Source: Gemmatimonadota bacterium (GTDB lineage Bacteria; Latescibacterota; UBA2968; UBA8231). Taken from it: a stretch of DNA of 63,381 bases. Shown piece after piece: positions 55,055 to 63,381 of this stretch. Each line of letters opens with the position of its first letter. Position 1 is the first letter of the stretch. The stretch covers positions 1 through 63,381 of the forward strand of contig PATE01000062.1 in the NCBI GenBank assembly GCA_002712305.1. Direction: 5' to 3'. A program made the translations under genes and the position numbers. The notes below the pieces were generated by a model. The model searched no databases. It saw only the letters and a program-made list of their open reading frames with translations, and was not told the DNA's origin.

Positions 55055-57793
55055 TCACGTGAGCGTGTCTGGTGGTCCGGCTCTTTCATCGTCGTCAGAA
55101 GGTGGGGGTGGTTCCGACTCGGGATCGTCGTCGTCATCGTCGAAGGAGACCGGCTTGCGTTGGGCAAGATGCGACACGCCGATACTGATCTCGTAGAGCA
55201 CCATCAACGGCAAAGCCATCAACAGCTGCGAGATCGGATCTGGTGGCGTGAACACGGCAGCCACCAGGAAGATGCCGACAACGGCATAACGACGAACACG
55301 TCGTAGATAGTCTGGTGTCAGCAGCCCCAACCGCGACAGGAACAGACTGACCACGGGCATTTCAAAGACGACCCCGAAACCCAGCAGAAGGCGCAGGACG
55401 AATCCGATGTATTCGTCGACGGCCCATTGGGAGATCATGTCTGCCGGCTCAAGACTCAGGAAGAATCTCAAGCCCAGGGGCAGCACGATCTGGTGAGCGA
55501 CGGCAGCACCCAACAGAAAGCAGAAGACACTCAAGCCAATGATGGGCAGCACGAGTCGTCGTTCTCTGTTGAGCAGTCCAGGTGCAACGAATCGCCACAA
55601 CTGGTAGAAGACGATGGGTGATGCAAGGATCAGACCGCCCAGGAGGGCCACCTGCAGGCTGACGATGAACCAGGTCATCACACGCAAGGACTGTAGTTGA
55701 CGTCGATAGGGAAGGACCTGTTTTGAGTCCTCGCCCTCGCCTTCAACCGACGGAACGTCGGCTGAATCGACAACCGTAGTCCCCGATGATTCGCCAGATG
55801 ATTGGTCAACTGATTGGTCAGATGATTCTACCGGCGAGTCACTGACGCGAACCCTTAGTTCCTCCACCCAGAGGCGGATCGCCGTGGCCGGCCCCGGCGA
55901 GTTCTGTTGCTGAAGACTGATCACCGCCTGCTCATAGGGCTGCGTCAGCAAATGGAGCAATGGGTCGGCGTAGGCGAAACAAACGGCGGCACCCACGAGC
56001 AATGCCCCAATCGCCTTCAGCAGGCGCCAGCGCAACTCCTCGAGGTGGTCGAGAAAAGGTATTTCGCGGGCCGGTTCCGCATCCGACCGGCCATCGTCGA
56101 TAGCCATGTTGTCTTGTGAAATCAGAGTGTCATCCGTCGACGTAGAACCACCGTGTGCCGTGCGCCCACCATCGGAAGCGGGCGCGTAGAATCTCAGGGC
56201 GAACAGAGCCAGGACGCCAAGGGCCAGACAGATCTGTGCGAACCAGTCCCCATACCGCGTATAGAAGGTCGGCTCTGCGCCGTGCAAAGCAACGCTACCC
56301 ACATTCACCGCGGTGGTACCAAACTGTGTATGGGCTGTGCTGCGTCCGTAGGCGTCCACGAAGAGGCTGACTCCGTTGGTTGCACAACGGGCGATGGGGC
56401 GGCGATTCTCCACAGCGCGCATGGCGGCGATTTGCGCGTGTTGGAAGGGGCCGGAGGTCGCACCGAACCACGAGTCATTGGTGATGATCACGAGTAACTC
56501 GGCGCCCTGAGCCACGTGCCGGCGGACAAGATCCGGGAAGACCGACTCGAAGCACACAAGGGGACCGATCCACTTCCTGTGATTGCCCAGTGGGCGACCG
56601 GGATTTCCCGTGGGGCGATCGGAATCGCCCCTGATCGGGAAGAGAGTCCGCTTCTGACCCCTGGCAAACTGCGCCGGTGCCAGGTCTCCAGTCAGGGCGG
56701 TCCAGTCGATGTTCCGCAGTCCGGGAATCGCATCGAGATACGGTGTGCGCTCGCCAAAGGGAACCAGGTGCATCTTGGCATAGGTCAGCAGCGTATCGTG
56801 GTTCGGCTGCACGTAGTAGACGGCATTCAGGGGTTCGCCCCTGGCCTTGTCGATGCCGGGAGCGCCGGTCAGCACACGAACATCGAATTCGTCAGCCAGA
56901 GACTGGATGGAGCGACGGCACGAGGCGCGCTGGCTCAGATCACAAGGGACCGCCGTCTCCGGCCAGATCAGCAGATCGACGTGTTCTTTGCCCAGGGCCT
57001 CACGAGAGAGCGAATCGAGACTGTGAATGCTCTTCTGGAGGCCGCCCGGCCTCCACTTGACTCGACCCAGGTTGTTCTGAATCAGGCCGATTCCGACGGT
57101 CTCGCCCTCGTCTGTAAGTGCTTGCGACAGCATCCACCAGCCCGTCCCGTACAACGTGCCCACGATCATCACACCAGTGACACATCCCGGGATCCGCAGG
57201 CTGTTGTCGAGGATCGCCAGGCTGAGGCAAGCGCTCACGGCAACGACGGCAAAGCTGATCCCGTATACGCCGGTTAAGCTCGCCGCCTGAATGAGCGTCG
57301 GGACGTCCGCCTGGCTGTGACCGAGCAGGAGCCAGGGGAATCCCAACTGCCCCAGAGACATCAGATACTCGACTGCCGTCCACAGCACTGGCGCAGCGAG
57401 GACACCGCGTGTTCCCCACCTGCGGATGACGCCAAACTGTACCATCGCGAACAGGCCCGTGAACACCGCCAGGTAGGCGGCACCAAGACCGGTTCCAGCG
57501 ATGACGGCGGGGCCCCCGCCCTGCGTGTATCCCACCCAGTACAGGCAGATCAGGTTGCCCACAAAACCAGCGGTCCATCCACGTCGAAACGCTGAGGCCT
57601 TGCTCGTTGCCGAGTGTAAGACCAGCAGCAACGGGATCCATGCGATCCACGCCCACACCGGGTGGAAGAGGAAGGCCACAGCAAGATCCGGGTGGCAGGG
57701 GAAGGACAGACCAAACAGCAGTCCTGCCAACAGGCATAGAGCAGTGACAGGACGCAGGGTCTGACGGCGGAGGATGAGAAGTTGGTTGATCAC
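55055..57793 (-). CDS. lnt-tatC: Apolipoprotein N-acyltransferase fused to Sec-independent translocase TatC (Lnt-TatC)
   Basis: One open frame of 912 codons from GTG 57793; the frame is open 42 codons further up (GTG 57919), without Lnt-like sequence. Residues 1-555 are Lnt: about seven membrane helices around a nitrilase domain with the triad E279 (LIWPETAVP), K340 (YAKMHLVPFGER) and C414 (LVCFESVFPD). After the last Lnt helix (AQICLALGVLALFALRFYA) comes a short linker, then TatC from about 575: PFLDHLEELRWRLLK (579 on), FYQLWRFVAPGLLNRERR, VFEMPVVSLFLSRLGLL, VFTPPDPISQ and an acidic C-tail. The first periplasmic loop of TatC has a Ser/Asp/Glu-rich insert (about 649-693). An internal ATG at residue 563 could allow separate TatC, but no ribosome site is seen. 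Confidence 0.9.
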   Translation of the reverse strand: MINQLLILRRQTLRPVTALCLLAGLLFGLSFPCHPDLAVAFLFHPVWAWIAWIPLLLVLHSATSKASAFRRGWTAGFVGNLICLYWVGYTQGGGPAVIAGTGLGAAYLAVFTGLFAMVQFGVIRRWGTRGVLAAPVLWTAVEYLMSLGQLGFPWLLLGHSQADVPTLIQAASLTGVYGISFAVVAVSACLSLAILDNSLRIPGCVTGVMIVGTLYGTGWWMLSQALTDEGETVGIGLIQNNLGRVKWRPGGLQKSIHSLDSLSREALGKEHVDLLIWPETAVPCDLSQRASCRRSIQSLADEFDVRVLTGAPGIDKARGEPLNAVYYVQPNHDTLLTYAKMHLVPFGERTPYLDAIPGLRNIDWTALTGDLAPAQFARGQKRTLFPIRGDSDRPTGNPGRPLGNHRKWIGPLVCFESVFPDLVRRHVAQGAELLVIITNDSWFGATSGPFQHAQIAAMRAVENRRPIARCATNGVSLFVDAYGRSTAHTQFGTTAVNVGSVALHGAEPTFYTRYGDWFAQICLALGVLALFALRFYAPASDGGRTAHGGSTSTDDTLISQDNMAIDDGRSDAEPAREIPFLDHLEELRWRLLKAIGALLVGAAVCFAYADPLLHLLTQPYEQAVISLQQQNSPGPATAIRLWVEELRVRVSDSPVESSDQSVDQSSGESSGTTVVDSADVPSVEGEGEDSKQVLPYRRQLQSLRVMTWFIVSLQVALLGGLILASPIVFYQLWRFVAPGLLNRERRLVLPIIGLSVFCFLLGAAVAHQIVLPLGLRFFLSLEPADMISQWAVDEYIGFVLRLLLGFGVVFEMPVVSLFLSRLGLLTPDYLRRVRRYAVVGIFLVAAVFTPPDPISQLLMALPLMVLYEISIGVSHLAQRKPVSFDDDDDDPESEPPPPSDDDERAGPPDTLT

Positions 57794-61196: not shown

Positions 61197-62132
61197 CTAC
61201 AGGCGTCGACTCAGGGATACTCGATGCACATCGCCCAGATCTGGGAAGGAGGAGAAGGCGTAGTCGACGCGATAGCTCCTCAGCTCGAGGCCGCCTCCGG
61301 CGGACAACCCGAGTGTCTCGTCTCCCGCACTGCCACCCTGCTGCAGGCTGTACCCGGGCCGCAAGGTCAGACCTCCTCCGAACTCAATCTCGGCGCCGAA
61401 TGTGGCGTACGCGTCGTTGTCGTTCGGGACGGTGAAATCAGCCACGATCAGCAACGGCACCGGAAAGTGTGCGGGACGGTGAGCGATCCCGGCCCGAAGC
61501 AGAACGGGCAGCGAGTCATCAAACCCATCGGTGTAGCCACTATAGACAGAACCGAGGTTGGCAATGGACGCACCCAGCGTCATTCCCTCCAGGGGGCCCA
61601 TGAACAGAAGGCCGAGATCGAAGGCCAATGCGGCGGCGGAGTAGTCGTCGATACTGGAGTGGATGGATTTGATGCTGCCACCGGCCGACAGGCGGCCACC
61701 AAACAGTGACTGGGTTGCTGTGACGGCGGCGGCCAGGTCGCTCGCACTGAACGTACCCAGATCCTGCCCATCGGCATCGGTTCGATGAAGGTCGCCGTAG
61801 TTGAAGTAGTTCACACTCACGCCAAAGGTGCGATCGCCACCAGGCATGGCAAAACTGAGAAAGCCCGCCTCCGTATCCACGAGATAGCTGGTGTAGGCAA
61901 GCGAGGCTGTGCGCGCCTGCAGTCCATGAAGCCCGGCTGGGTTCCACGCAGGTGCTTCGATATCGCTGCGAATCGCCGTAAAGGCGCCGCCCAGGCCCGC
62001 GGCACGGGCGCCGACGCCAACCTTGAGGAAACTGAAACCCGTCGTGCCGGCGCTGTCATTGATTGCGTGAACGTTCTGTGACAACAATGCGCTCAGGGCG
62101 ACAGCCAGGAGGGTGATACGTGGCATCCTCAT
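61197..62132 (-). CDS. PorV/PorQ-type (UPF0164) outer-membrane beta-barrel protein
   Basis: Start ATG 62132 (MRMPRITLLAVALSALLSQNVHA signal peptide). 311 residues. After cleavage: GFSFLKVGVGARAAGLGGAF and WNPAGL, the PorV hallmark (GxxAxxMGGA...NPA), then FGVSVNYFNYGDLHRTD, AAAVTATQSLFGGRLSAGGS, FDLGLLFMGPLEGMTLGASIANLG and a C-terminal barrel ending RVSLSRRL. In FCB-group bacteria this family serves type IX secretion or similar export of proteins with C-terminal sorting domains; such a domain occurs on the broken gene at 2478. It starts 31 bp after gatA ends, probably co-transcribed. Confidence 0.85.
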   Translation of the reverse strand: MRMPRITLLAVALSALLSQNVHAINDSAGTTGFSFLKVGVGARAAGLGGAFTAIRSDIEAPAWNPAGLHGLQARTASLAYTSYLVDTEAGFLSFAMPGGDRTFGVSVNYFNYGDLHRTDADGQDLGTFSASDLAAAVTATQSLFGGRLSAGGSIKSIHSSIDDYSAAALAFDLGLLFMGPLEGMTLGASIANLGSVYSGYTDGFDDSLPVLLRAGIAHRPAHFPVPLLIVADFTVPNDNDAYATFGAEIEFGGGLTLRPGYSLQQGGSAGDETLGLSAGGGLELRSYRVDYAFSSFPDLGDVHRVSLSRRL

Positions 62133-62163
62133 CGATTCTATCCAGTCGGAGCCGAAGCTCGAT

Positions 62164-63381
62164 TCAAGCGGTCTGTTCAATGTGATGGGCGGCACGAAGC
62201 AGCGTTTCCTCCGCGAAGGCAGGGGCCAGCAGTTGAGCACCGATGGGCAGGCCGTTCTGGGCGGTTGCCACGGGCACTGATACACCGGGAAGCCCAGCGA
62301 GATTCGCTGTCACCGTGTAGATGTCATTCAGATACATCTGCAGCGGGTCGTCGATCTTGTCTCCCAGGCAGAACGCCGTCGTCGGTGAGACGGGCCCCAG
62401 CAACAGGTCACAATCGGTGAAGGCGCGGGAGAAATCTTCGCGAATCAAGGTTCTGACCTTTTGCGCCTTGAGATAATACGCATCGTAGTACCCGGCGCTG
62501 AGTACGTACGTTCCGAGCATGATTCGGCGTTTGACCTCATCCCCAAAGCCTTCACTGCGGCTTTGATGGTACATCTGCTGCAGGTCGGATGCCTCGCCAG
62601 AGCGATAACCGAAACGGACACCGTCATAACGAGACAGGTTCGCCGACGCCTCTGCAGTGGCGACCACATAGTATGCACCGATGCAGTATTCGGCATGTCC
62701 TGCCACGGGCAGTGAGACGTTCTGCAGTTTTGCTCCTGCCGATTCCAGTCGACTCGCCGTTGCCTCGATCGCAGCGGCCGTCTCTGCGTCGAGACCTTCG
62801 CCAAAGAACTGCTCCGGCAGTCCGATGGTTAGACCCCCGACCCCCGCTCGAAGTTTCTGGCAATAATCAGGTACTTCCACATCCGCGCTGGTTGCATCTG
62901 AGGCATCATGCCCCGAGATCACACCCAAAAGCAGGGCAGCATCCTCCACATCCTTGGTCAGGGGGCCGATCTGGTCGAGGGAACTGGCAAAGGCAACCAG
63001 TCCGTAACGAGAGACACGGCCATAGGTCGGTTTCAGTCCGACGATGCCGCAGTATCCAGCGGGCTGGCGCACGGAGCCTCCCGTATCAGATCCCAGCGCT
63101 GCGATCGCCGTGTCTGCGGCGACGGCGGCGGCGGAGCCACCACTGCTTCCGCCAGGAACTCGGTCGAGATCGCGAGGATTCCGGGTCGGGCCGAAATGGG
63201 AGTTTTCATTCGACGAGCCCATGGCGAACTCGTCCATATTCGTCTTGCCCAACAGGACGGCATCCGCCGCACGGAGTTTGGCGACAGCCGTCGCATCGTA
63301 CGGAGCGACATAGTCGGCGAGGATTCGCGAACCGCACGTCGTGCGACCACCGCGAACACACATCACATCTTTGATGGCTAT
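62164..63381 (-). CDS. gatA: Asp-tRNA(Asn)/Glu-tRNA(Gln) amidotransferase subunit A (5' end outside window)
   Basis: The frame runs off the window end, starting in the catalytic lysine motif IAIKDV; about 75-85 N-terminal residues are missing. 405 residues seen. Amidase-signature triad: Lys in IAIKD, cis-Ser in [15 protein letters not shown] and nucleophile Ser region [15 protein letters not shown]. GatA blocks [40 protein letters not shown] and [11 protein letters not shown]. It liberates ammonia from glutamine to amidate misacylated tRNA, with GatB and GatC, which are not in view. Followed by the PorV-like gene. Confidence 0.95.

What the first reader, a model, noticed from the sequence alone, without database searches (positions are those of the whole stretch)
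55055..57793. Lnt and TatC encoded as one polypeptide
A single uninterrupted frame carries a complete apolipoprotein N-acyltransferase (triad E279, K340, C414) followed by a complete TatC. The order fits topology: Lnt is expected to end in the cytoplasm and TatC to begin there. The linker is short and TatC has an extra Ser/Asp/Glu-rich loop of about 45 residues on the periplasmic side. Lnt finishes lipoprotein maturation and TatC exports folded proteins, some of them lipoproteins, so the fusion could couple Tat export to lipidation. I know of Lnt-Ppm1 fusions in actinobacteria but not of Lnt-TatC. No tatA is next to it.
Basis: partly seen in the sequence, partly recalled or inferred. Interest (0 to 1): 0.88.

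Follow-up and report, generated by a model that had tools for sequence, protein, structure and literature searches.

The report
Fused lipoprotein acyltransferase and Tat translocase
In one class of uncultured bacteria, the enzyme that finishes lipoproteins (Lnt) and the core of the folded-protein export machine (TatC) are encoded as a single protein that is the only TatC found in those genomes, which suggests a physical link between two pathways usually studied apart.

Summary
One uninterrupted minus-strand frame (55055-57793, 912 aa) carries LNT_N, CN_hydrolase and TatC domains, each far above the Pfam cut-offs, with active-site and Tat motifs intact. It is not an assembly error: the same fusion is in 29 of 47 class genomes (a 30th is cut at a contig end), including four single-contig assemblies. 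Eleven more carry lnt and tatC as adjacent genes, mostly frame-offset. Outside the class the two genes lie apart. In the genes' tree the fused state needs at least four changes, and one origin within the window's family is rejected, so separate fusions of a neighbouring pair look likeliest. Wherever TatC was found it is one copy, so the fusion must do that genome's Tat export; the f3/f4 families have no other Lnt. The window's linker has no plausible internal start. About 40% of detected Tat signals in fused genomes carry a lipobox, against 0 of 24 in unlinked genomes of the phylum (confounded), so coupling of Tat export to lipoprotein maturation is plausible but unproven. Correction: tatA lies about 5.8 kb upstream, just beyond the contig edge. 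I found no published Lnt-TatC fusion; the nearest precedent is mycobacterial Lnt-Ppm1.

The parts
55055..57793 (-). lnt-tatC fusion gene, 912 codons from GTG 57793, stop at 55055-55057
57227..57727 (-). Lnt membrane domain (Pfam LNT_N, residues 23-189)
56297..57040 (-). Lnt periplasmic nitrilase-like catalytic domain (CN_hydrolase, residues 252-499; E279, K340, C414)
56177..56233 (-). last Lnt transmembrane helix (hydropathy peak, residues 521-539)
56063..56176 (-). acidic, Ser/Thr-rich linker (residues 540-577), predicted cytoplasmic; no start codon with a Shine-Dalgarno sequence; the conserved relatives' ATG before PFLDHLEEL is ATA here
55208..56050 (-). TatC domain (Pfam TatC, residues 582-862; F735, E744, E811, D852)
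55709..55846 (-). Ser/Asp/Glu-rich insert in the first periplasmic loop of TatC (residues 650-695); an f1 family trait, not tied to the fusion
55058..55150 (-). acidic C-terminal tail after TatC (residues 882-912)

Best explanation
The gene makes one bifunctional inner-membrane protein: an active apolipoprotein N-acyltransferase (8 helices plus periplasmic catalytic domain) whose cytoplasmic C-terminus runs through a flexible linker into an active TatC (6 helices), working with the single TatA as a minimal Tat system. It arose by in-frame joining of an adjacent lnt-tatC pair, most likely more than once. Likely role: the linker keeps Lnt at the Tat receptor/translocon, so lipoproteins that leave by Tat are N-acylated next to their exit site, while the same Lnt domain still serves Sec lipoproteins. 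Shown: one frame, intact motifs, recurrence in the class, single-copy TatC and TatA where found, Tat signals with lipobox in these genomes. Inferred: translation as one chain, activity of both halves, and the coupling.
For: Domains and motifs intact. The same three domains are in one frame in representatives of g7, g9 and g12; 29 fused genes, including single-contig G018, G024, G027, G030. TatC single-copy where found (G028's two matches are one gene cut by contig ends) and TatA single-copy in most genomes. No second full-length Lnt in f3/f4 or in G000. Split relatives keep lnt and tatC adjacent, though the f1 and f3/f4 flanks differ. Both halves are under purifying selection; in g9 the linker is as constrained (dN/dS 0.18) as the domains. 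No usable internal start in the g1 or g7 linkers. Lipobox in 12 of 30 Tat signals in five fused genomes, 4 of 19 in split, 0 of 24 in unlinked genomes (Fisher p 0.0005 fused v. unlinked).
Against: Coupling is circumstantial: fused and split genomes do not differ significantly in Tat-lipobox share (p 0.22), the unlinked sample is dominated by one family with very many Tat substrates, and two of the 30 fused-set signals look spurious. Lnt acts after Lgt and LspA (established pathway), so TatC-Lgt would be the more obvious partner. Linkers in g7 and g12 evolve almost freely (dN/dS 0.82, 0.55). Several f1 genomes have a second, lone Lnt. No expression data; the AlphaFold2 model was unusable.
Confidence: 0.5

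Rival explanations
1. The fusion is real and made as one chain but has no special coupling role: a neighbouring, translationally coupled gene pair lost its stop repeatedly, and the fusion was kept because it is harmless or fixes a 1:1 ratio.
For: Split relatives have overlapping or abutting genes; the fused state needs at least 4 changes on the tree and one clade within f1 is rejected; linker sequence and length are unrelated between groups and nearly unconstrained in g7 and g12. Other TatC frames run into unrelated genes elsewhere: TatC-LptD_2 in G124, TatA-TatC in G086, RnfB-TatC in G062.
Against: No reversal is needed in the f3+f4 clade of 19 sequenced rows; the g9 linker is as constrained as the enzymes; Tat signals with lipoboxes are common in these genomes.
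Confidence: 0.38
2. The frame is continuous but two proteins are present in the cell, by internal initiation at a conserved ATG before PFLDHLEEL or by cleavage of the linker.
For: An ATG codon stands directly before PFLDHLEEL in nearly all relatives; weak to good Shine-Dalgarno-like sequence in a few (G015, G046, G045, G035).
Against: That Met also stands there in split TatC genes that start upstream, so it is a conserved residue; in the window it is ATA; no candidate start in the g1 and g7 linkers; the Shine-Dalgarno score at the internal ATG is like the background of internal ATGs in most genomes. Cleavage was not testable.
Confidence: 0.1
3. Sequencing or assembly artefact that removed a stop or shifted the frame.
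For: The window comes from a 146-contig assembly.
Against: Congener G001/L032 has the same fusion at 73% protein identity; 29 fused genes, four in single-contig genomes.
Confidence: 0.02

Closest known systems
Lnt-Ppm1 fusion of slow-growing mycobacteria (Rv2051c / BCG_2070c; PMC3850990, PMC3460810)
   Same: N-terminal Lnt joined to a second envelope-biogenesis enzyme; partners are separate adjacent genes in M. smegmatis and C. glutamicum and fused in M. tuberculosis/BCG; a functional link between the partners was reported
   Different: The partner is a polyprenol-phosphate mannose synthase, not a protein translocase
Canonical Lnt (E. coli, PDB 5n6h; NCBIfam TIGR00546)
   Same: Fold-defining domains, triad motifs, 290-bit equivalog match
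   Different: C-terminus continues into TatC; Phe at the position of Y388
Canonical TatC (PDB 4b4a, 4hts, 9e02; NCBIfam TIGR00945)
   Same: Full TatC domain with functional motifs
   Different: N-terminus attached to Lnt; enlarged P1 loop in f1 (an insert at the same place is also seen in 9e02)
TatA-TatC single frame in G086 (seen here)
   Same: TatC preceded by another membrane protein domain in one frame
   Different: The partner is a Tat component

Membership tests
Apolipoprotein N-acyltransferase (Lnt) | LNT_N plus CN_hydrolase domains, equivalog score over cut-off | tested here: met
Apolipoprotein N-acyltransferase (Lnt) | Glu-Lys-Cys triad and other essential residues | tested here: met
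   E279, K340, C414, E348, E416, W247 by motif; Y388 position is F415
Apolipoprotein N-acyltransferase (Lnt) | N-acylates lipoproteins | not testable with these tools
   needs an assay
TatC | TatC domain over cut-off with conserved cytoplasmic Glu and TM residues | tested here: met
TatC | a TatA partner in the genome | tested here: met
   one tatA on C113, about 5.8 kb upstream
TatC | Tat substrates in the genome | tested here: met
   TIGR01409 and PF10518 hits in G000 and relatives
TatC | transports RR-signal proteins | not testable with these tools
   needs an assay
Lnt-Ppm1 fusion | Ppm (glycosyltransferase) domain joined to Lnt | tested here: not met
   only LNT_N, CN_hydrolase and TatC in Pfam

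The most novel reading that the evidence does not exclude
Lnt-TatC forms a single export-and-lipidation machine in which the Tat translocon carries its own N-acyltransferase, and this arrangement evolved several times within one class because Tat-exported lipoproteins are an important substrate group there.
Probability: 0.33. Interest if true: 0.82.

Novelty: new variant of a known kind. Interest (0 to 1): 0.6.

Why it matters
Tat export and lipoprotein maturation are studied as separate steps. A natural, repeatedly evolved single-chain link between TatC and Lnt gives a testable case that the two can be physically coupled, a ready tool for Tat-lipoprotein studies, and a fusion-based hint that TatC and Lnt may lie close together in other bacteria. 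It also warns annotators that a missing tatC or lnt in this class is in fact a fused gene.

Tried and rejected
Artefact: rejected by relatives and single-contig genomes. Internal TatC start: no consistent Shine-Dalgarno sequence, ATA in the window. P1 loop as part of the fusion: rejected, also in split f1 TatC. Tat-lipoprotein scan by regex on 400 kb each of G018, G027 and G049 was too small to be useful; replaced by HMM hits. AlphaFold2 with a two-row alignment gave pLDDT 35, not used. Genome-contig scan found only the congener. Plasmid tblastn found no record covering 80% of the query. Paper searches found no Lnt-TatC fusion. Domain-wide sample of 227 genomes outside the phylum: no listed TatC was seen in a frame with Lnt; only long frames were inspected and weaker matches were not listed, so this is not exhaustive.

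Full report
What is there. The frame 55055-57793 lies on the minus strand, begins with GTG at 57793 and codes for 912 residues without a stop. Pfam gives LNT_N 23-189, CN_hydrolase 252-499 and TatC 582-862, all far over their cut-offs; NCBIfam calls both an lnt equivalog (290 bits) and a tatC equivalog (207 bits). Relatives with solved structures are Lnt of E. coli and other bacteria and several TatC entries. The last Lnt helix is about 521-539 and TatC homology starts at about 578, leaving a linker of about 38 residues rich in Asp, Ser and Thr.

How general it is. All TatC matches of the phylum were listed with their open frame and the lnt and tatC frames were mapped in each locus. In the window's class 47 genomes are held: 29 have one frame with both domains (G000, G001; G015; G016, G018, G020-G024; five f4 and fourteen f3 genomes), and G028 is cut by a contig end in the same arrangement. 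Eleven have adjacent same-strand genes (G002, G003, G004, G007, G008, G009, G011, G013, G014, G017, G025). Six have no or only fragmentary tatC, four of them with no match in assemblies of 73-85% estimated completeness. G018, G024, G027 and G030 are single-contig assemblies and fused, which excludes an assembly accident for the lineage. In seven genomes from other families of the phylum, lnt and tatC were found on different contigs or loci. In a sample of 227 genomes outside the phylum no listed TatC was seen in a frame with Lnt, though the weakest matches were not printed.

Origin. On a tree of concatenated Lnt and TatC without the linker, the fused state needs four changes; forcing the fused members of family f1 into one clade is rejected (p-AU about 1e-69). 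Most split pairs have tatC in a different frame from lnt, overlapping or abutting it, which is how an ordinary coupled pair looks and not how a fusion broken by a stop looks; four (G007, G013, G008, G014) are in the same frame with one stop codon between. Linkers of the groups are unrelated in sequence and length. I therefore favour repeated fusion of an old neighbouring pair over one fusion and repeated fission, but counts of changes cannot prove the direction. The pair has different neighbours in f1 (radC side) and f3/f4, so its linkage does not depend on the surroundings.

Is it made as one protein? Both halves show dN/dS of 0.05-0.18 in the three closely related groups. In g9 the linker is as constrained (0.18) as the domains; in g12 and g7 it is loose (0.55, 0.82). 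A separate start for TatC is unlikely in g1 and g7: no ATG/GTG/TTG with a Shine-Dalgarno sequence is in their linkers, and the ATG that precedes PFLDHLEEL elsewhere is ATA in the window. That Met is conserved in split genes that start upstream too, so it is a residue rather than a relic start. Cleavage after synthesis cannot be excluded.

What it must do. TatC is single-copy wherever it was found in the class (G028's two matches are the two ends of one gene) and TatA is single-copy in nearly all; so if Tat works in these genomes, the fused protein does it. In f3/f4 and in the window's genome no second full-length Lnt was found, whereas several f1 genomes have a second lone Lnt (G000 is 91% complete). 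tatA lies about 5.8 kb upstream of lnt-tatC in the window's genome, next to gatA on contig C113, which overlaps the window's end; the same order holds in G001, G002, G003 and G015.

Does it couple Tat export and lipidation? Twin-arginine signals found by TIGR01409 were checked for a lipobox: 12 of 30 in five fused genomes, 4 of 19 in split and 0 of 24 in unlinked genomes; fused v. unlinked p 0.0005, fused v. split p 0.22. Examples with lipobox are an ActB-like oxidoreductase (LTNC in G000, LSGC in G018) and a solute-binding protein (LAGC in G027 and G041); these functional names are my reading of the sequences. So these bacteria appear to send lipoproteins through Tat, which gives the fusion a purpose, but the comparison is confounded by kinship and by the very Tat-rich f6 genomes, and Lnt is the last of three enzymes. 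I put coupling somewhat above the neutral rival but not by much.

Compared with what is known. The closest precedent is Lnt joined to Ppm1 in M. tuberculosis and M. bovis BCG, whose partners are neighbouring separate genes in M. smegmatis and C. glutamicum (PMC3850990; PMC3460810). No paper found in the library describes Lnt with TatC; subscription papers are not held and database domain-architecture listings were not available, so automatic annotation of such fusions may exist. Each half is an ordinary member of its family; the combination and its recurrence are new to me. The congener's record (L032) is labelled a Gemmatimonadetes MAG by NCBI; the phylum by GTDB is not known here.

Limits. 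All evidence is sequence-based. The structure prediction had two rows and failed. Tat signals were found with an HMM of limited sensitivity, and two of the thirty in the fused set look spurious.

Noticed in passing
L294 (G000 contig C113) 81-2804; window end 61197-63381: Contig C113 of the same assembly overlaps the last 2.2 kb of the window with a few differences and continues it: gatA, then tatA (2493-2804, minus).
   Followed up: yes
L295:980-4591 (G124, another phylum): TatC (28-239) and an LptD_2 outer-membrane domain (504-967) in one 1204-aa frame: another TatC joined to an envelope-biogenesis protein, or a read-through of abutting genes.
   Followed up: partly
L299:2596-4254 (G062, f5): An RnfB-like iron-sulfur protein runs in frame into TatC (553 aa); the join is abrupt, next to a CxxCGxC motif, and could be a rearrangement.
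   Followed up: partly
L296:2342-3832 (G086): TatA and TatC in one 497-aa frame with a long Ala/Pro/Glu linker.
   Followed up: partly
L080, L081, L073, L074 (G007, G013, G008, G014): lnt and tatC lie in the same frame separated by a single stop codon; read-through or recent fission could be tested.
   Followed up: no
G048, G052, G056 (family f6 of the same phylum): 68-95 Tat-signal hits per genome against 2-14 in the window's class, almost none with a lipobox in the sample read.
   Followed up: partly
window 55709-55846 and f1 relatives: The first periplasmic loop of TatC is 40-70 residues longer in the f1 genomes measured, fused or split; role unknown. PDB 9e02 TatC has an insert at the same place.
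   Followed up: partly
G001:C96:19224-20711 and f1 relatives: A second, lone Lnt (about 33% identical) is present in several f1 genomes, so they have two Lnt types.
   Followed up: partly
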